Shown: piece after piece, positions 32,024 to 39,828 of the stretch
Layout: every line of letters starts with the position of its first letter
How positions within the stretch are numbered: position 1 is the first letter of the stretch
NCBI RefSeq assembly: GCF_003345355.1
Contig: NZ_QQNB01000002.1
Coordinates: forward strand, 558,001 to 622,000
Source: Sphingomonas aracearum
GTDB taxonomy: Bacteria; Pseudomonadota; Alphaproteobacteria; Sphingomonadales; Sphingomonadaceae
DNA: 64,000 nucleotides
Direction: 5' to 3'
Position numbers and translations under genes: made by a program
Notes under the pieces: model-generated
What the model was told of the DNA's origin: nothing
The model's input: only the letters and a program-made list of their open reading frames with translations
The model's database searches: none

Positions 32024-32306
32024 CCCGCGCTTATGCCGCTTCCCGGCCTCGTCCGCGATACTGAAGTCAGCGCTGACGCCCCGGCGCGGGTAGACAGCAG
32101 GAAAGGCACGGCCCCGCAACAGTTCTGCCCCTTCATCACCGCAAGAACCCGGGTCCGGACGCTCGCACCGCCCTTTCCGCCCCCGACTTCGGACAACCTG
32201 CGCATCCGCGGCTCGTGCGGCAGCGCTGCATCATCTGCCCTGACTGTCCCCGAACTGACATTTGCTGCGGCTATCGGCCTGCCTGTTCGCAACGTCGCGA
32301 GATCAC

Positions 32307-32876
32307 GTGACCGTCATCCGACCTATCGATTGCTGGTTTGCGCAGGAAGTGCTGCCGCATGAGCGCGAGCTGCTGATCGTGGCGCGCCGGCTCCGCACGG
32401 GCAGCGATGAGCCGCAAGATCTGGTGCAGGACGTTTTCGCCCGGATGCTGACCACCGAGGGATGGTCGGCAATCGCCAATCCCCGCACCTACATGCTCCA
32501 GATGCTGCGCAACATCGCCATCGATCGCATGCGGCGGGCCAAGATCGTCGATTTCCGCCACTTCGCCGATGCCGACGAATACGATCTGCCGGATGACGCG
32601 CCCGATCCGCACCGGATCGTCGAGGGCCGCCAGCAGATGAAGGCGTTCGCCGAGGCGCTGCACGCCTTGCCCGAACGCTGTCGCGTGGTGTTCGAGCGGC
32701 GACGCATCGAGGGCCAATCGCCTCGTCAGATCGCAAGCGAGTTGGGAGTGAGCCTCTCGACTCTGGAAAAGCGGCTCGCCCGTGCCATCCACCTGCTCAC
32801 CCGGGCACTCGAACCGGGCCGAGCGGGCGACGCATCGGACGGGGCAGCCTCCGAACGGCTGCGGCAAGAGCGCTGA
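32307..32876 (+). CDS. ECF sigma factor, FecI type
   Basis: The 189-residue protein has sigma region 2 (EPQDLVQDVFARMLTTEG and LQMLRNIAIDRMRRA) and region 4 (LPERCRVVFERRRIEGQSPR, QIASELGVSLSTLEKRLARA). This is the layout of FecI-like sigma factors that drive TonB-receptor operons. The GTG at 32307 was chosen because it directly precedes the conserved part; the frame is open from 32262. The anti-sigma gene is 127 bp downstream. Confidence 0.9.
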   Translation: MTVIRPIDCWFAQEVLPHERELLIVARRLRTGSDEPQDLVQDVFARMLTTEGWSAIANPRTYMLQMLRNIAIDRMRRAKIVDFRHFADADEYDLPDDAPDPHRIVEGRQQMKAFAEALHALPERCRVVFERRRIEGQSPRQIASELGVSLSTLEKRLARAIHLLTRALEPGRAGDASDGAASERLRQER

Positions 32877-33003
32877 GCCCGAACGGCCCTTCGCGCGACC
32901 TTCCCTTCCCGTTTATTTTGCGCCAGCCGATTGGCGGCCGGCATGGCGGTTGGCACGGCATGGTTCGTCTTAGGGATATGGCATTGCTCGAAATGACCGC
33001 CGC

Positions 33004-33951
33004 GTGACGCGGCAAGGCGACAATCCCGAACCGGTACACGCGGACGACACGGCCGCGGCGCAGGCGGCCACCTGGCTGGCACGCTATCAGCTCGGCACGC
33101 TCGACGAAGCCGCATTCGACGCGTGGCGCACCGCCGACCCGGCACACGCGGTCGCCTTCGCCCGCGCCTGGGCGATGTGGGACCGGTTCGAGGCCCAGCC
33201 GGCAAGTGCCGCCCAGCCGCCGCTTCCCGTCCGCCCGGCCCGGCGCGAGCTCCTGCGGGCAGCCTGTGCGGTGCTGGCAGTGGGCATCGTCGCGGCCGGC
33301 ACCAGCGTGACCCGTGCCTATGCCTGGAGCAGCGCGACGACCGCTCTGGGCGAGAACAAGCGGCTGCGGCTGCCCGATGGCAGCATGGCCGCGCTCAATA
33401 CCGATTCGCGCCTGTCGTGGCGCTTCTCCGACCGCGAGCGCACCTTCTGGGTGGAGCGCGGCGAAGTGTCGTTCGCGCTGCGAGACGGTCCCCGCGCGAT
33501 AGTGCAGGACGATGGCAAGGCAATCCGGCTCTCTCCGGGCCGATTCAATCTGCGCCGGCGCAGCGAGGCGGTCGACCTGCTCGTGCTTGCCGGAAGCGCC
33601 AGCGTGACCGATGCGGGCGGCCGCCTCGTGCGGGCCGATCCGCGGCTACCCAGCCTGCTGGTGTCGCAGAGCACCGCCGTGGTTCGTCCTGCAACCAGCG
33701 AGCAAGTCGCCGGCACGATTGCCTGGCAGAGTGGCGAGATCCTGTTCCAGGATGCGACGCTGGGCAGCGCAGTGGAGGAATATAACCGCTTTCTCACCCG
33801 CAAGATCGTGATCGTCGATCGCGAGCTGGCGAGCATCCCCGTCGGCGGCCGCTTCACCTCGACCGATCCGACCGCCTTCCTTCGCGCGATTTCGGCGGGT
33901 CTCGGCGTTCGCGTGTCGCAGTCCAACAGCGCCTATCTGCTGACGCGGTAA
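33004..33951 (+). CDS. FecR-type anti-sigma regulator, inner membrane
   Basis: The 315-residue protein has the FecR N-terminal helix bundle (AATWLARYQLGTLDEAAFDA, WRTADPAHAVAFARAWAMWD), one transmembrane segment near residues 82-100 (ACAVLAVGIVAAGTSVTRAY) and a periplasmic FecR domain. The C-terminal part RFTSTDPTAFLRAISAGLGV is an STN-like signal-receiving segment. It should hold the sigma factor inactive until the receptor at 34059 is loaded. The start is GTG at 33004. Confidence 0.9.
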   Translation: MTRQGDNPEPVHADDTAAAQAATWLARYQLGTLDEAAFDAWRTADPAHAVAFARAWAMWDRFEAQPASAAQPPLPVRPARRELLRAACAVLAVGIVAAGTSVTRAYAWSSATTALGENKRLRLPDGSMAALNTDSRLSWRFSDRERTFWVERGEVSFALRDGPRAIVQDDGKAIRLSPGRFNLRRRSEAVDLLVLAGSASVTDAGGRLVRADPRLPSLLVSQSTAVVRPATSEQVAGTIAWQSGEILFQDATLGSAVEEYNRFLTRKIVIVDRELASIPVGGRFTSTDPTAFLRAISAGLGVRVSQSNSAYLLTR

Positions 33952-34058
33952 AAAAATCCGCGCCGATATGGCGGCGCCGGGTCTTTGGATCGTCTCTGCA
34001 AGGGAAGGCTTCAAAAAACCAACCCTCCTAAACCTTCGGGTCGCAAAAAGGTTCCTCC

Positions 34059-37000
34059 ATGTTCGCCAAAACCACTGGGGCGTCGCTCGCCGCGACGCTG
34101 CTGATGACGACTGCCGCCTATGCGGCGCCCGTGATGCCCGCTGCCGAGCGGCGCTTTGATATCGCGTCACAGCCGCTGGCCGGCGCCCTCACCGACTATG
34201 GCCGCCAGGCCGGCGTGCAGATCTTCTTCCCGCGCGCCTCCATCGCCCATCTCCGCTCGGGCGGCGTTCGCGGCCAGATGAGCCGCGAGGCGGCGTTGCG
34301 CCGGCTGATCCTGGGCAGCGGGTTGCAGGTCCGCAGCGACGATGGGCGGACGGTGGTGCTGGGCGTGGCACAAGGGGCCGAAACCGCCCGTGCCGCGACC
34401 GTGGCGCTGCAACTGCCCGACGCGCCCGCCGGATCGGGCATGCAGGACAACACCGCTCTCGCCGGCGAGGAAGCCCAGACCGATCAGGAGATCGTCGTCA
34501 CCGGCACGGTGCCGCTGGAGGAGGAAAAGGCGCTGGAATGGAAGCGGCGGCAGATCGGCACCAATGCCGTGATGTCAGGCGAGACGATCGCGCGCCGACC
34601 GGGCGGCAACATCGTCGACATCCTGGCGGTGCTCCCCGGCGTCACCGCCTATGCCGATATGGGCCTGGGCCAGGCGGCGACGGGCGAGGCCGAATATGTG
34701 TCGATCCGCGGCATCGACTCCAGCTACAACGCCTATTCGATCAACGGCATGCGCGTGGCCGAGGCGGATCCCGCCACGCGCGCGCTCTCGCTCAAGATGG
34801 TCGCCCCCTATGGCTTGCGCTCGGCCAGCGTGTCGAAGACCCCGAGCGCGTCGGACTATGGCGATTCGATCGGCGGTACCGTCAACATCGATACGCCCGA
34901 CGGCTTCCAGTACGGCCGCCGCCATTTGAAGGTGACCGGCGGCGCGAATTACAACGATCGCGCGGATCGGCTGGGCTTCAAGGCCTTTGGCGGCGTCGGC
35001 CAGGTCGAGCTTGGCGGCATCTTCGGCGCCAACGAGAATATCGGCTTCTACGCCACCGGCTATTACGAGCAGCGCAAATCGGCCGCGGAGAGCACCGAGG
35101 CGATCCAATATGTTCCCGCCACCGCCAATGCCCCGCGCGACGAACTGACGCCGCAGGGCGTTCGCTTCGACCTCTATGACTCCTCGATCACCCGCTATGG
35201 CGGCAACTTCTCGCTCGACTTTCGCGACGACGGCTTTTCCGCCTTCATGCGGGGTTCCTATGGCCACTACAACGTGTCGTCGGTCGATGTGCAGCACAGT
35301 CTGACCTCTTCGGTCCTCGCGCAGATCGGCGCGGCGCCGCAATATGACGCCAATGGCAATTACCTGCCGCTCGGCACGCTGGCAGGCAGCTATTTCCAGG
35401 CGCGCGACCAGATCTCGCAGCTCGCCACGATCCAGGGCGGCGCCGACTTCGCCGTGGCGGACAAGCTCAGCATGTCGCTGCGCGCCTCCTATGGCTATGG
35501 CGAGCAGCGCCGGCCGAACTATGCCGAAGGCAGCATGTACAGCGACACCAGCCTGCTGATCGACAGCGCAGGCAATCCGGTGGGCGGCGCGACCATCGAC
35601 ACCTCGGACCCCACCAGGATCGGCCTGACCTTCATGGACCCGGCCTATCGAGACCGCATCCTCAGCGCGGAGTCGATCCGCGTCTGGAAGTTTCAGGGCC
35701 GCGACGTGAAGTCGGACGACAATCTGTTCGAATTGAAGCTGGACATGGATTATGCCGCCGGCGGCGTGCTCCAGCACCTGAAATGGGGCGCGAACCTCAG
35801 CGTCTCGGATCGTGCCCAATATGATCGCGGGCTGCTGGGCAACAATGGCGACAATTTCGTCATTCCCGCCGCCGATGGCAGCCGGCCGGGATCAACGGCG
35901 GCGGTGGGGCCGACGGCGGGGTCGCTGGCCGGCCGCAACATCGATTTCATGAACGGCAACTATCCCGATTTCCGCTTCTACGATCGTGCCTATTTCGAGA
36001 ATGCGATCCTGCCCTACGCTTATTCAAACCAGTTCACGCCGGACGGATCGCCGAACCCGGGCTATTACACGGTCAACGATTACAACCGGAACACGGTAAC
36101 CGGCACCGAGACGGTCTATGCCGCCTATGTCCAGGGCGATGCGATGCTGGGCCCGGTCCAGCTCGTCGCCGGCCTTCGCTTCGAGCACACCGATTTCCGT
36201 GCGACGCACTGGGTCACGGTGACCGACAGCGCGGGCGCCTCGCCGAACGACACCGGCTATTTCACCAGCGACGGTAATCGCTACAACCAGTTCCTGCCCA
36301 GCCTGAACCTCGCCTGGCGCCCGAACGATCGCATGGTGGTGCGCGCCGCGGCCCGCCGCAGCTTCGCCCGTCCTGCCTTTGCGCTGATCGCCGGTCCCGA
36401 GACCTATGGCTATAGCACCCTGCCCGGACAGGAGAACCAGCTGCTGTTCGTCAATCGCTCGAACCCCGATCTGAAGCCTACCGAGGCCACCAATGTCGAT
36501 CTGGGCGCGGAATGGTATCCGGATCGCAGCGCCGTCATCGAAATCGCGGGTTTCTACAAGCACCTGACCAACTTCGTCTTCACCGCCAGCGCCACGGGCA
36601 GCACGCCGAGCGCAAGCAACGGCGCGGATGTGATCGGCGGCATCACCTACACCATGCCCGAGAACGGCAACGCCGCCGACCTCTACGGCGTCGAGTTTCA
36701 TGCCCGGAAGCAGTTCTTCGAACTGGGCGGGTTCCTCGGCGGCTTCGGCGTTGAAGGCTCGGCCACGCTGCAGGACAGCAAGGCCGACAGCGGCCTGGCC
36801 GGCCATGGCAAGACCGTGCTGCCCCGCGCGCCGCACGTGATCTACAATGCCGAGCTGTTCTACGAGCGGCCGGCCTTCTCGGCCCGGCTCGCCTGGCAAT
36901 ATGTCGGCCGCCAGCTGCTCAGCCTGAACAACCAGCTGGACACCTATCTCCAGCCCAATCGCCAGCTGAACTTCAACGCCACGTATCGCCTGACGCCGAA

Positions 37001-37163
37001 CTGGTCGATCTCCGGACAGGTGCAGAACATCCTGAACCAGGAGAGCTTCTACAAGACGATGGGCAAGTCCACGCGCTATCTCGGCACCCAGGATGGCGGC
37101 GGCAACGGCTCCTATGTGGAAACCGGCCGGTTCTTTAAGCTGACCACCTCGTTCCAATGGTAA
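34059..37163 (+). CDS. TonB-dependent receptor with STN signalling domain
   Basis: The 1034-residue outer-membrane protein has a signal peptide ending AYA, an STN domain (about residues 31-105: FDIASQPLAGALTDYGRQAG through LQVRSDDGRTVVLG), a TonB-box-like EIVVTG near residue 145, a plug domain (MSGETIARRPGGNIVDILAV, YVSIRGIDSSYNAYSINGMR), and a long beta-barrel ending FKLTTSFQW. The STN domain marks it as a transducer that signals to the FecR/FecI pair upstream. The ligand is unknown, but the overlapping genes downstream suggest a phospho-ester or related organic compound rather than only a siderophore. Confidence 0.93.
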   Translation: MFAKTTGASLAATLLMTTAAYAAPVMPAAERRFDIASQPLAGALTDYGRQAGVQIFFPRASIAHLRSGGVRGQMSREAALRRLILGSGLQVRSDDGRTVVLGVAQGAETARAATVALQLPDAPAGSGMQDNTALAGEEAQTDQEIVVTGTVPLEEEKALEWKRRQIGTNAVMSGETIARRPGGNIVDILAVLPGVTAYADMGLGQAATGEAEYVSIRGIDSSYNAYSINGMRVAEADPATRALSLKMVAPYGLRSASVSKTPSASDYGDSIGGTVNIDTPDGFQYGRRHLKVTGGANYNDRADRLGFKAFGGVGQVELGGIFGANENIGFYATGYYEQRKSAAESTEAIQYVPATANAPRDELTPQGVRFDLYDSSITRYGGNFSLDFRDDGFSAFMRGSYGHYNVSSVDVQHSLTSSVLAQIGAAPQYDANGNYLPLGTLAGSYFQARDQISQLATIQGGADFAVADKLSMSLRASYGYGEQRRPNYAEGSMYSDTSLLIDSAGNPVGGATIDTSDPTRIGLTFMDPAYRDRILSAESIRVWKFQGRDVKSDDNLFELKLDMDYAAGGVLQHLKWGANLSVSDRAQYDRGLLGNNGDNFVIPAADGSRPGSTAAVGPTAGSLAGRNIDFMNGNYPDFRFYDRAYFENAILPYAYSNQFTPDGSPNPGYYTVNDYNRNTVTGTETVYAAYVQGDAMLGPVQLVAGLRFEHTDFRATHWVTVTDSAGASPNDTGYFTSDGNRYNQFLPSLNLAWRPNDRMVVRAAARRSFARPAFALIAGPETYGYSTLPGQENQLLFVNRSNPDLKPTEATNVDLGAEWYPDRSAVIEIAGFYKHLTNFVFTASATGSTPSASNGADVIGGITYTMPENGNAADLYGVEFHARKQFFELGGFLGGFGVEGSATLQDSKADSGLAGHGKTVLPRAPHVIYNAELFYERPAFSARLAWQYVGRQLLSLNNQLDTYLQPNRQLNFNATYRLTPNWSISGQVQNILNQESFYKTMGKSTRYLGTQDGGGNGSYVETGRFFKLTTSFQW

Positions 37164-38287
37164 GGCGGCGGCGCGCGCTGCGCTTGCTTGCGGCGGCGCT
37201 GCTGTCGCTCGGTCTGGCCGCTCCCGCGCCTGCGCGGGAGGCGGACCAGGTCGAGGGCCTGCCGGGTTCGCTGCGCCTCGATCAGGTGCAGCAGCTCGGC
37301 TCGCACAACAGCTACAAACACTATCCCTCCCCCGCCGCGCAGGCGCGGATCGAGGCACTGGCGCCCGAGCATCGGGATGGCCTCGATTACGGCCATCCTC
37401 CGCTGGAGGCGCAGCTTTCGCTGGGTATCCGCCAGATCGAAATCGACGTCGCGCCCGATCCGCAGGGCGGCCGCTATGCCACGCCCTACCAGCTCCTCGC
37501 CAGGGCGGCGCACGGGGCGATGATGGCACCGGGCGCCAAGGTGCTGCACTTCCCGCAAATCGACTTCGAGAGCCATTGCCTCAGCTTCCGCGACTGTCTG
37601 GCGGTGCTGCGCCGCTGGTCGGACGGACATCCGGGGCATCTGCCGGTGACCGTGCTGGTCAACGCCAGCGACTTCCCGCCGATCGCTGGCTTCTGGCTGC
37701 AGGACGCAAAGTTCGAGGCGGGCGATCTCGACGCGCTCGATGCGGACATCCTGGCGATGATCGGCCGCGACAAGCTGATCCGCCCGGACGACGTGCGTGG
37801 GACCCGCGCCACGCTGGCGCAGGCGGTCCGCGCCCATGCGTGGCCCAGGCTCGATGCCGCGCGCGGGCGCTTCCTGTTCGTGCTGGACGGAAACGAGCGG
37901 CATTACGCCCTCTATCGCGCCGGCCATCCCTCGCTGCAGGGGCGCGCGATGTTCGGTTACTACCCCGAAGCGGATGCCGAAGCGGCGATCTTCAACATCC
38001 AGGAGCCACGCGGGCATGAAGCGGAGATCACGCGTCTGGTCCGCGCCGGCTTCCTGGTGCGCACCCGTGCCGATGCGGACACCCGAGAGGCGCGCAGCAA
38101 CGATCGCACCCGCCTCCATGCCGCGATCGCTTCGGGCGCGCAGTTCGTCAGCAGCGACTATTATGACGGCGTCCCCAATCCGCACGGCTATGCCTATCGC
38201 GCCGCGCTGCCCGGCGATCGCCTGCGCCGCTGCGATCCGGTGACGGCGCCCTGCTCCATGCAATCTCGCTCGAAACGAGGAAAATGA
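37157..38287 (+). CDS. Phosphatidylinositol-specific phospholipase C-like protein, Ca2+-dependent type
   Basis: The 376-residue protein has a signal peptide ending APARE, then LDQVQQLGSHNSYKHYPSPA with His50, the catalytic His of the PI-PLC TIM barrel, and IRQIEIDVAPDPQGGRYATP carrying the metal-binding acids. Further blocks (PVTVLVNASDFPPIAG, GRFLFVLDGNERHYALYRAG) fit the Ca2+-dependent bacterial family (PF16670 type). It overlaps the TonB receptor gene by 7 bp and the next gene by 4 bp, so it is in one operon. It probably cleaves a phosphodiester in the periplasm. Confidence 0.85.
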   Translation: MVRRRRALRLLAAALLSLGLAAPAPAREADQVEGLPGSLRLDQVQQLGSHNSYKHYPSPAAQARIEALAPEHRDGLDYGHPPLEAQLSLGIRQIEIDVAPDPQGGRYATPYQLLARAAHGAMMAPGAKVLHFPQIDFESHCLSFRDCLAVLRRWSDGHPGHLPVTVLVNASDFPPIAGFWLQDAKFEAGDLDALDADILAMIGRDKLIRPDDVRGTRATLAQAVRAHAWPRLDAARGRFLFVLDGNERHYALYRAGHPSLQGRAMFGYYPEADAEAAIFNIQEPRGHEAEITRLVRAGFLVRTRADADTREARSNDRTRLHAAIASGAQFVSSDYYDGVPNPHGYAYRAALPGDRLRRCDPVTAPCSMQSRSKRGK

Positions 38288-39828
38288 TGTTCGACCTGCT
38301 CGCGCTTGCCGCCTCCGCCGCCCTGCCCCAGCCCACCCTGCCGCAGGTCGTCCCCTCGCCCGCGGCGGCGCAGCCGGACGCTTCGGGTGACCTGGTGCTT
38401 TCGGGCACGTTCACCGATGCCGATCGCGGCAGCTATCGCGAGCTGCCGTTCGATGTGCCCGCCGACGTCACCAGGATGACGATCGAGATGGAGGGCGCCG
38501 ATCCGGCCAAGGGCATCTATCTGGTGCTCGGCCTCTACGATCCGCAGCGCGAGCGCGGTTGGGGCGGCGCGATCAAGCCAAGGATCACCATCGCTGAGAC
38601 CTTCGCCTCCACTTCCTATCTGCCGGGGCCGCTGCCGGCAGGGAAATGGCGCCTGAGCGTAGCGGTGGCCTTCCTGCGCCCGGGCGCGGTCTCGCCCTGG
38701 AAGCTGCGCGTCCATTTCGATCGCGGCCCGGCCGCGCAGCAACTGTCGGCCACGCCGCTCAAGGCCGGTGCCGGCTGGTATCGCGGCGACTTCCACACCC
38801 ATACCGGCCACAGCGATGCCGTGTGCCGCAGCGAGCCCAGCCGCAATCCCGTCCCCTGCCCGGTCTATTTCACGCTGCAGGCGGCCCGGGCGCACAAACT
38901 CGATTTCGTCTCGGTGACCGATCACAACGTGACCTCGCACATCGCCGAGCTGGCGACGATCGCGCCCTATTTCGACGGACTGCTGACGATCCCCGGCCGC
39001 GAAATGACCACCCAATATGGCCACTACAATCTGATCGGCGTGACCGATTTCGTCGACTTCCGCGTCGGCCCGGTCGGGCACAAAGACATCAACGCGATGT
39101 TCGATGCCTCAAAGGCCACCGGCGCCCTGGTTTCGATCAATCATCCCGAAATCCCGACCGGCGAGAATTGCCTGGGCTGCGGCTGGTCGGCGCCGGGCAC
39201 CGATTATAAAAAGGTCGGCGCGATCGAAGTCGCCAATGGCGGGATCGCGGCCGAGCATGGTGACAAGTTCGACGACGGCGAGGGATCGGGTACGGCCTGG
39301 TGGGAAAAGCTCCTCGACCAGGGCTTTCACCTGACCGCGATCGGCGGCAGCGACAATCACGACGCGATCGATGGCCGCGCCGGCAGTTCGCCGGTGGGCG
39401 CCCAGTCGGCGGTCGGCACGCCCGCGACCGTGGTGCATGCCGCCGAACTGTCGCAGGCCGGCATCCTCGCCGGCGTGCGTTCGGGTCGCGTGTTCATCGA
39501 TCTGGAAGGCGCGCATCCCGAGCGGCTGCTCGACCTGTCGGCCAGCGTCGCCGGCGGTCCGGCAGTCGCGATGGGCGGTACGCTGCACCGCCGCGCGGGG
39601 CGGCCGATCCGAGGCACGGTGCAGGTCAAGGGTGCAGCGGACCACCGCGTGGATCTGATCGTCGACGGTCGCCACGTCGCGCTGCCGGCGGGCGGACAGG
39701 TCGTGGGCTCCGACGCGGCCGTGCCCTTCACCATCGCCGCGGGCGACAAGGCGCACTGGATCCGCGCCGATATACGCACCGCCGACGGCCGCCGCGTGCT
39801 GATCGGCAACCCGATCTATGTGGAGTAA
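38284..39828 (+). CDS. CehA/McbA family metallohydrolase (PHP domain), exported
   Basis: The 514-residue protein has a short signal region, a beta-rich N-terminal domain (to about 155), and a PHP hydrolase domain beginning WYRGDFHTHTGHSDA (His171, His173) with SVTDHNVTSH, LTIPGREMTT, VSINHPEIP and IGGSDNHDAIDG supplying the metal ligands. A beta C-terminal domain follows. CehA and McbA act on carbaryl ester, and relatives hydrolyse phosphoesters. It overlaps the PI-PLC gene by ATGA, so both should act on the same imported substrate. Confidence 0.87.
   Translation: MMFDLLALAASAALPQPTLPQVVPSPAAAQPDASGDLVLSGTFTDADRGSYRELPFDVPADVTRMTIEMEGADPAKGIYLVLGLYDPQRERGWGGAIKPRITIAETFASTSYLPGPLPAGKWRLSVAVAFLRPGAVSPWKLRVHFDRGPAAQQLSATPLKAGAGWYRGDFHTHTGHSDAVCRSEPSRNPVPCPVYFTLQAARAHKLDFVSVTDHNVTSHIAELATIAPYFDGLLTIPGREMTTQYGHYNLIGVTDFVDFRVGPVGHKDINAMFDASKATGALVSINHPEIPTGENCLGCGWSAPGTDYKKVGAIEVANGGIAAEHGDKFDDGEGSGTAWWEKLLDQGFHLTAIGGSDNHDAIDGRAGSSPVGAQSAVGTPATVVHAAELSQAGILAGVRSGRVFIDLEGAHPERLLDLSASVAGGPAVAMGGTLHRRAGRPIRGTVQVKGAADHRVDLIVDGRHVALPAGGQVVGSDAAVPFTIAAGDKAHWIRADIRTADGRRVLIGNPIYVE

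What the first reader, a model, noticed from the sequence alone, without database searches (positions are those of the whole stretch)
32307..39828. FecI/FecR/STN-TonB receptor operon with two periplasmic hydrolases for an unknown ligand
The sigma factor and anti-sigma are followed by a 1034-residue transducer receptor that overlaps a Ca2+-type PI-PLC-like gene, which overlaps a CehA/McbA-type PHP hydrolase. The overlapping genes argue for one substrate pathway: bind and import, cleave a phosphodiester, then hydrolyse an ester or phosphate. Phosphoinositides, inositol phosphates, phospholipids or an ester xenobiotic are all possible. This differs from the usual iron-citrate or siderophore theme of FecIR systems.
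Basis: partly seen in the sequence, partly recalled or inferred. Interest (0 to 1): 0.6.

Follow-up and report, generated by a model that had tools for sequence, protein, structure and literature searches.

The report
Self-regulated operon for scavenging organic phosphate
A Sphingomonas bacterium carries a self-regulated set of five genes that probably detects, imports and breaks down phosphate-bearing inositol compounds (such as those in plant and fungal membranes), and it suggests a natural job for an enzyme family so far known mainly for degrading pesticides.

Summary
In detail: sigma factor, FecR, STN-TonB receptor, PI-PLC-C1 and CehA/McbA-type PHP hydrolase lie in order, the last three overlapping. 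Beyond that: (1) the same five-gene operon is in five named Sphingomonas genomes, but, apart from three of these, nowhere else in samples of 101 genus, 347 family and 385 class genomes; (2) two copies of a conserved ECF-type promoter (TGGCGG-N16-CGTC), before fecR and before the receptor, recur in all six genomes, as in a FecIRA-type autoregulated unit; (3) the receptor is not siderophore-like: all 15 of its nearest non-operon relatives lie within two genes of a phosphoester-hydrolase gene, 10 of them AppA-type; (4) receptor > PI-PLC > CehA/McbA recurs on a Hymenobacter plasmid (Bacteroidota) with phosphatases, and a related receptor-PHP pair sits in an inositol-catabolism cluster. Best reading: scavenging of phosphorus from inositol-phosphate or phosphoinositide ligands, with the PHP enzyme in the phosphatase slot. 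It works like phosphate-utilisation system PUSI of Flavobacterium, itself an ECF-sigma/PI-PLC cluster: a new variant of a known kind. Weak points: no proven Pho box in this operon, no enzyme assay, exact ligand unknown.

The parts
32244..32261 (+). Conserved block CTGTCCCCGAACTGACAT upstream of the sigma gene; Pho-box-like, identity uncertain
   Evidence: 16 of 18 bases kept in S. kyeonggiensis and 13 of 18 in strain PP-CE-1G-424, against 36 and 31 of 100 in the flanks; 11 of 14 to CTGTCAT-N4-CTGTCAT, reached by 27 of 763 background upstream regions; not recognised by the pstS-derived matrix
32307..32876 (+). FecI-type ECF sigma factor, 189 aa
   Evidence: PF08281 49 bits, PF04542 37.2 bits; conserved first gene of the operon
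32944..32970 (+). Putative ECF promoter copy 1, TGGCGG-N16-CGTCT, before fecR
   Evidence: TGGCGG-N16-CGTC is present in all six operon genomes
33004..33951 (+). FecR-type anti-sigma, 315 aa
   Evidence: PF04773 34.4 bits, DUF4880 26.6 bits
33969..33995 (+). Putative ECF promoter copy 2, TGGCGG-N16-CGTCT, before the receptor
   Evidence: Same motif and spacing, 75-90 bases before the receptor start in six genomes
34059..37163 (+). STN-TonB-dependent transducer receptor, 1034 aa
   Evidence: TIGR01782 487.7 bits, STN; sister to an AppA/PHP-linked receptor clade
34215..34364 (+). STN signalling domain of the receptor (residues 53-102)
37157..38287 (+). Presumably exported Ca2+-type PI-PLC-C1, 376 aa
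   Evidence: PF16670 342.4 bits; predicted fold (pLDDT 91.2) matches 5fyp and 3h4w
38284..39828 (+). CehA/McbA-type PHP metallohydrolase, 514 aa
   Evidence: NF038032 241.2 bits; PHP-type His/Asp/Glu residues invariant in 33 sequences; predicted fold (pLDDT 86.5) closest to predicted PHP phosphoesterase 3e38

Best explanation
A cell-surface-signalling operon for acquiring phosphorus from inositol-phosphate-containing organic molecules. Inferred cycle: the receptor binds and imports an inositol phosphate, glycosyl-inositol-phosphate or phosphoinositide-derived ligand. Its STN domain signals through FecR to the ECF sigma factor, which transcribes fecR and receptor-PLC-PHP from two copies of TGGCGG-N16-CGTC. 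In the periplasm PI-PLC-C1 cleaves the phosphodiester, and the PHP enzyme removes phosphate from the product, for uptake of the phosphate. Shown by sequence: gene order, families, conservation, the twin promoter-like elements, the receptor's kinship with AppA-linked receptors. Inferred: ligand, enzyme activities, signalling, low-phosphate control.
For: Operon intact in 5 named Sphingomonas. Twin promoter-like elements. All 15 of 15 nearest non-operon receptors in 101 genomes lie within two genes of a phosphoester-hydrolase gene: 10 AppA-type histidine phosphatase, 3 CehA/McbA PHP, 2 calcineurin-like. Across 72 PI-PLC loci, 48 have an adjacent TonB receptor and 21 a phosphatase (AppA-type, PhoA or PAP2) within three genes. 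The own genome's second STN receptor lies beside a PI-PLC paralogue, PAP2 and PhoD. Receptor > PI-PLC > PHP recurs in Hymenobacter next to phosphatases; receptor-PHP lies beside iolG-iolC-iolD in S. parapaucimobilis. Pi-induced ECF-sigma/TonB/PI-PLC cluster PUSI in Flavobacterium (PMC8115612, passages). None of 4 operon genomes has iolD over cut-off, favouring phosphorus over carbon.
Against: No proven Pho box: the pstS matrix puts the sigma promoter near the background median. Receptors linked directly to PI-PLC show no significant Pho-box excess (12 of 44 at 10 or more; p 0.16). PHP loci have none of the seeded phosphatases within three genes (0 of 34). Only 4 of 10 annotated plasmid-borne PHP loci inspected have an inositol or phosphodiester link. 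Two of the three PHP links of the receptor clade are convergent, not co-directional. FecIR-STN relatives in Novosphingobium carry aminotransferases. The PI-PLC has Asn169 where solved enzyme 3h4w has Glu129.
Confidence: 0.6

Rival explanations
1. General organophosphate scavenging: same logic, but the ligand is a non-inositol phosphodiester (glycerophosphodiesters, nucleotides, phospholipid head groups), and PI-PLC-C1 and PHP have shifted specificity.
For: PI-PLC-C1 relatives pair with PhoA, PAP2, calcineurin-like and PLC-type phosphoesterases; CehA/McbA PHP pairs with glycerophosphodiester phosphodiesterase and ABC transporter genes in Roseinatronobacter and Deinococcus; Asn in place of a presumed Ca-ligand Glu in 45 of 52 PI-PLC sequences hints at shifted chemistry.
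Against: AppA-linked receptor clade and iol-linked receptor-PHP pair point to inositol.
Confidence: 0.22
2. Uptake and hydrolysis of an ester or carbamate compound (natural or xenobiotic) with the PHP enzyme acting like carbaryl/carbofuran hydrolase CehA/McbA.
For: NF038032 is named after CehA and McbA; 28 of 34 PHP loci follow a TonB receptor without PI-PLC between; a review draws a TonB receptor with carbofuran genes (PMC8292978, passages).
Against: Fixed association here with PI-PLC in six genomes and in Hymenobacter; inositol and phosphodiester contexts of other family members; closest solved folds are PHP phosphoesterases/nucleases.
Confidence: 0.08
3. Classical iron system: a FecIRA-like siderophore receptor with enzymes that dismantle the siderophore or release iron.
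For: FecI/FecR/STN architecture; N-terminal match to FpvA, PupB and HasR. The one receptor of a PHP-only locus examined is siderophore-like but below cut-off (111.7 of 223.5 bits).
Against: TIGR01782 and no TIGR01783 match for this receptor; AppA-linked sister clade; no Fur consensus; PI-PLC has, to my knowledge, no role in siderophore breakdown.
Confidence: 0.05
4. Envelope-lipid remodelling: PI-PLC and PHP act on the cell's own lipids, and the receptor only senses.
For: Caulobacter replaces phospholipids by glycolipids under phosphate starvation and its PhoB regulon holds phospholipase C and TonB receptors (PMC11208175, passages).
Against: Hydrolase genes overlap that of a full transport barrel and track TonB receptors across phyla.
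Confidence: 0.05

Closest known systems
PUSI, phosphate utilisation system of Flavobacterium johnsoniae (PMC8115612; passages read)
   Same: ECF sigma factor, TonB outer-membrane receptor, PF16670 PI-PLC and a second phosphodiesterase in one cluster; induced by phosphate depletion there.
   Different: Here a single STN-type receptor (no SusD), an adjacent FecR, a CehA/McbA PHP enzyme as second hydrolase; Alphaproteobacteria; induction not tested.
FecI-FecR-FecA ferric citrate surface signalling
   Same: Sigma, anti-sigma and STN receptor in the same order and the same logic.
   Different: Receptor family TIGR01782, enzymes downstream, extra promoter-like element before fecR, no iron signature.
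TonB receptor-phytase pairs (Citromicrobium, PMC3400609, one passage; AppA-type pairs found here)
   Same: Receptor of the sister clade next to an AppA-type (phytase/inositol-phosphatase-like) gene.
   Different: No FecIR pair lies beside those receptors in my loci; the operon has PI-PLC and PHP instead of AppA.
CehA/McbA carbaryl-carbofuran hydrolases (PMC8292978, passages)
   Same: NF038032 PHP domain; periplasmic in one studied case; TonB receptor drawn near in some clusters.
   Different: Known members are described as ester/carbamate hydrolases; here linked to PI-PLC and inositol-phosphate contexts.
Gene cluster of Hymenobacter volaticus plasmid NZ_CP095068.1
   Same: Receptor > PI-PLC (40% identity) > CehA/McbA PHP (33% identity).
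   Different: SusC/SusD receptor, alkaline phosphatase and endo/exonuclease/phosphatase genes; no FecIR seen in the 19 kb.

Membership tests
Phosphate utilisation system (PUS) | TonB-type outer-membrane receptor co-located with periplasmic phosphoesterases | tested here: met
   by family and gene order; activity and location of the enzymes not tested
Phosphate utilisation system (PUS) | SusC/SusD pair | tested here: not met
   single TIGR01782 receptor followed directly by PI-PLC
Phosphate utilisation system (PUS) | Induced by phosphate depletion | not testable with these tools
   Pho-box evidence inconclusive
FecIRA-type cell-surface signalling | ECF sigma, FecR and STN-bearing receptor in one unit | tested here: met
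FecIRA-type cell-surface signalling | Sigma-dependent promoter before the receptor | tested here: inconclusive
   conserved TGGCGG-N16-CGTC before receptor and before fecR in six genomes; dependence on this sigma factor not tested
FecIRA-type cell-surface signalling (iron branch) | Iron ligand or Fur control | tested here: not met
   no Fur consensus with 3 mismatches in the window; receptor family not siderophore
PI-PLC-C1 (PF16670) | Family profile and fold | tested here: met
   342.4 bits over the whole profile; fold match to 5fyp and 3h4w
PI-PLC-C1 (PF16670) | Ca2+ ligand set (His-Asn, Glu-x-Asp, and a further Glu) | tested here: inconclusive
   H50, N51, E95, D97 kept; the further Glu (3h4w Glu129) is Asn169, as in 45 of 52 sequences; the role of the residues is recalled
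CehA/McbA metallohydrolase (NF038032) | Profile above cut-off | tested here: met
   241.2 against cut-off 80
CehA/McbA metallohydrolase (NF038032) | PHP metal-site residues | tested here: met
   H171, H173, D178, H214, E240, H287, D357, H359 invariant in 33 sequences; assignment as metal ligands is recalled
CehA/McbA metallohydrolase (NF038032) | Carbamate ester hydrolysis | not testable with these tools
   needs an assay

The most novel reading that the evidence does not exclude
The CehA/McbA-type PHP enzyme is an inositol-phosphate phosphatase (or cyclic inositol-phosphate hydrolase), and this natural role is the source from which pesticide carbamate hydrolases were recruited. The STN receptor recognises the inositol-phosphate or glycosyl-inositol-phosphate head group of plant or fungal membrane lipids, so the operon is a surface-signalling sensor and harvester of host phospho-inositol lipids.
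Probability: 0.22. Interest if true: 0.75.

Novelty: new variant of a known kind. Interest (0 to 1): 0.5.

Why it matters
It makes three questions testable at once: the natural substrate of the CehA/McbA PHP family, known mainly from pesticides; the ligand of a large uncharacterised group of sphingomonad TonB receptors; and whether FecI-type surface signalling controls organic-phosphorus uptake in Proteobacteria, as an ECF-sigma cluster seems to do in Flavobacterium. At least one carrier, Leaf242, is by its name a leaf isolate, where membrane phospho-inositides and phytate could be phosphorus sources (habitat inferred, not looked up).

Tried and rejected
Rejected: iron/siderophore theme. Broad co-conservation of the two hydrolases: in the genus sample 44 of 101 genomes have a PI-PLC relative, 27 a PHP relative, 18 both (11.8 expected; hypergeometric p 0.005), but only 4 have them adjacent. 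In the family sample 30 and 17 of 347 have them and only the window genome has them adjacent (the tool scored only the 4-5 best candidates per genome). In the class sample 4 and 1 of 385.

Did not work: Pho-box test of this operon. The consensus scan is suggestive; a matrix from 19 of 32 pstS loci fails for the window's sigma promoter and also rates 10 of 45 other receptors above the background 95th percentile, so it is not specific. Fur-like heptamers: 0-1 sequence per receptor group for each word, no sign of Fur. The twin-promoter 11-mer is not rare genome-wide: 47 hits in four genomes against 37 for the reversed control, 7 of the 47 in the operons; its support is conserved position, not rarity.

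Limits of the counts: gene calls come from my own codon-usage script and labels from phmmer seeds. Neighbourhood counts used every genus PI-PLC place except one short fragment (G018) and the second piece of a split one (G023), but only 21 of 34 non-own PI-PLC places and 8 of 17 non-own PHP places of the family search. Five weak genus PHP matches were not counted as PHP loci: two of them lie in L125 and L129, three were not fetched. L091 (PHP in pieces) was left out of the PHP alignment, which also leaves out near-duplicates: it holds 33 sequences. The tree holds only receptors from loci I fetched and no reference siderophore receptors. The background of 7% for a gene next to a TonB receptor (78 of 1090) comes from the same receptor-rich loci.
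Full report
What is there. Five genes run in one direction: ECF sigma (32307-32876), FecR (33004-33951), STN-TonB receptor (34059-37163), PI-PLC (37157-38287), PHP hydrolase (38284-39828). The families are clear. The PHP enzyme has no Pfam match at E 0.1 but matches NF038032 (CehA/McbA) at three times its cut-off. Predicted structures are confident (pLDDT 86.5 and 91.2); nearest solved folds are a predicted PHP phosphoesterase (3e38) and the RNase AM PHP domain for PHP, and Ca2+-dependent PI-PLCs for PLC.

Distribution. In 101 genomes of the genus, PI-PLC relatives occur in 44 and PHP relatives in 27; they are adjacent in four, always in the order sigma-FecR-receptor-PLC-PHP. In 347 family genomes and 385 class genomes only the window genome has the adjacent pair. 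A scan of one genome per species found the whole operon in Sphingomonas sp. PP-F2F-G114-C0414, PP-CE-3A-406, PP-CE-1G-424, Leaf242 and S. kyeonggiensis DSM 101806. Equal contig lengths show three of these to be the sampled G034, G070 and G078. The next receptor hits (25-38% identity) have no PLC or PHP beside them. So the operon is a narrow, well conserved unit.

Regulation. The gap before the receptor in six genomes holds one conserved element, TGGCGG-N16-CGTCT, 75-90 bases before the start codon. The same hexamer pair with the same spacing (TGGCGG-N16-CGTC) lies before fecR in all six. The CGTC at the -10 place is, from recall, typical of ECF sigma promoters. I read this as the sigma factor's own promoter, driving its anti-sigma and the receptor-PLC-PHP unit. 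Genome-wide the pattern is no more common than its reversed control once the operon copies are set aside (40 against 37), so conserved position, not rarity, is the evidence. Upstream of the sigma gene a second block, CTGTC(G/C)(T/C)CG(A/G)A(A/C)TGACA(T/C), is kept at 63-66 bases (16 of 18 and 13 of 18 bases against about a third in the flanks). It resembles a Pho box: the window scores 11 of 14, S. kyeonggiensis 12 of 14, the PP strains 10; of 763 background regions 27, 3 and 137 reach these scores. But the pstS-derived matrix does not see it. I leave low-phosphate control of this operon open.

Receptor kinship. The 15 best receptor matches outside the operon in 101 genomes (30-34% identity) were all inspected. 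Ten lie next to an AppA-type histidine phosphatase gene. Three of these ten, and a fourth from a PI-PLC locus, were compared with NCBIfam: the AppA phytase and glucose-1-phosphatase/inositol phosphatase models are their only hits, below the equivalog cut-offs. Three receptors lie within two genes of a CehA/McbA PHP gene (in two of these the PHP gene belongs to a convergent receptor pair). Two lie two genes from a calcineurin-like phosphoesterase gene. In a tree of 155 receptors from my loci, the operon receptors are sister to these 15 (support 0.992). This is the strongest evidence on the ligand. Upstream of these 15, Pho-box-like repeats scoring 10 or more occur in 10, against 9 of 45 other receptors; for receptors followed by PHP, 11 of 30 score 11 or more, against 2 of 45 (one of the 15 in the script's set, L068, is a further relative and L070 is in the PHP set instead; Fisher p 0.003 and 0.0005). 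Sequences are related, so these p values are optimistic.

What PI-PLC and PHP go with elsewhere. Of 72 PI-PLC loci inspected, 48 have an adjacent TonB receptor and 21 a phosphatase (AppA-type, PhoA or PAP2) within three genes; of 34 PHP loci, 28 directly follow a receptor, three are the operon, three have none. In the window's own genome the second STN receptor sits with its own sigma and FecR, a PI-PLC paralogue, PAP2 and PhoD. Among plasmid records, all six annotated PI-PLC loci inspected have a TonB receptor, SusC or receptor-like gene at or near the PI-PLC (in 90 the neighbour is annotated only as carboxypeptidase-regulatory-like); two more records had no annotation. One, in Pseudoalteromonas, has sigma-FecR-receptor, metallophosphoesterase, PI-PLC and a second receptor. 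Of ten annotated PHP loci inspected, four have inositol or phosphodiester links: Hymenobacter volaticus (SusC-SusD-PI-PLC-PHP with phosphatases), S. parapaucimobilis (receptor-PHP-GH92-iolG-iolC-iolD), Roseinatronobacter and Deinococcus (glycerophosphodiester phosphodiesterase with ABC transporter). Six do not: two sugar-ABC contexts, three Haladaptatus, Streptomyces. One more PHP record had no annotation.

Inositol or just phosphorus? The S. parapaucimobilis receptor belongs with the sister clade of the window receptor (1079-1515 bits to several members), and its neighbours include inositol catabolism genes, as in genome G062, where iolD is present. None of the four operon genomes has iolD over cut-off. 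So if the ligand carries inositol, the operon more likely serves phosphorus than carbon supply.

Mechanism and known systems. I propose: bind and import; cleave the phosphodiester by PI-PLC; dephosphorylate by PHP, which occupies the slot held by AppA-type, PAP2, PhoA or calcineurin-like enzymes in related loci; amplify by STN-FecR-sigma signalling. The nearest described system is PUSI of F. johnsoniae, whose ECF sigma factor, PusCD receptor, PF16670 PI-PLC and second phosphodiesterase are induced by phosphate depletion (PMC8115612, passages). In Caulobacter, PhoB controls TonB receptors, a phytase and phospholipase C (PMC11208175, passages). A review of sphingomonad TonB transporters has no match for phytase, phospholipase, sigma or FecR in its text (PMC7142613). 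Ten searches of the open-access library listed no paper that I could recognise as describing a FecIR-controlled PI-PLC/PHP operon or a natural role for the CehA/McbA family; I read passages of six of the listed papers only, and subscription papers are mostly not held.

Oddity. The PI-PLC has Asn169 where 3h4w has Glu129, by recall the last Ca2+ ligand; 45 of 52 sequences share the Asn. The other four site residues are kept, so I take it as a subfamily trait, possibly with different metal use.

Verdict. Observation confirmed; interpretation partly supported and sharpened. New variant of a known kind. Interest 0.5.

Noticed in passing
L019:14768-15604 (own genome contig C9): An NPP1-family (necrosis-inducing-like) protein gene lies directly after the second STN receptor, in a locus with PI-PLC, PAP2 and PhoD. 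Not seen in the related loci L150 and L153.
   Followed up: partly
window 37157-38287, residue 169; 45 of 52 sequences: Most sphingomonad PI-PLC-C1 proteins examined have Asn where a solved family member (3h4w) has Glu in the presumed Ca2+ site.
   Followed up: partly
L201:3523-4620, L202:10640-11662, L205:10628-11923: FecI-FecR-STN receptor operons of Novosphingobium (sigma gene not seen in L201) end in PLP aminotransferase genes; the one in L201 starts with a signal-peptide-like stretch, suggesting an exported aminotransferase.
   Followed up: no
L208:2809-8934 (Caulobacter sp. 602-1): Two FecR-receptor units face each other, one ending in PhoD and the other in a glycerophosphodiester phosphodiesterase: further FecIR-type organophosphate candidates.
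   Followed up: no
L046, L048, L051, L055, L058: A PI-PLC subgroup lies divergent from a LacZ-type beta-galactosidase (annotated in L046) and a TonB receptor in five genomes.
   Followed up: no
L194, L195, L196, L197 downstream of PHP: A peroxidase-family gene (PF00141 in L021) follows the operon in four of the five named genomes but not in S. kyeonggiensis or the window.
   Followed up: no
L197 (Sphingomonas sp. Leaf242), start of fecR: FecR is called short (start 7401; 163 bits against about 350 in sisters): a frameshift, a sequencing error or a gene-calling artefact.
   Followed up: no
L241 and L070: Receptor - CehA/McbA PHP - GH92 with inositol catabolism genes nearby: a candidate pathway for mannosylated inositol phosphates.
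   Followed up: partly
L263, Zymomonas mobilis plasmid pZM32: A small plasmid carries a PI-PLC divergent from a TonB receptor gene; 14 Zymomonas plasmid records match the PI-PLC, only this one was inspected.
   Followed up: no
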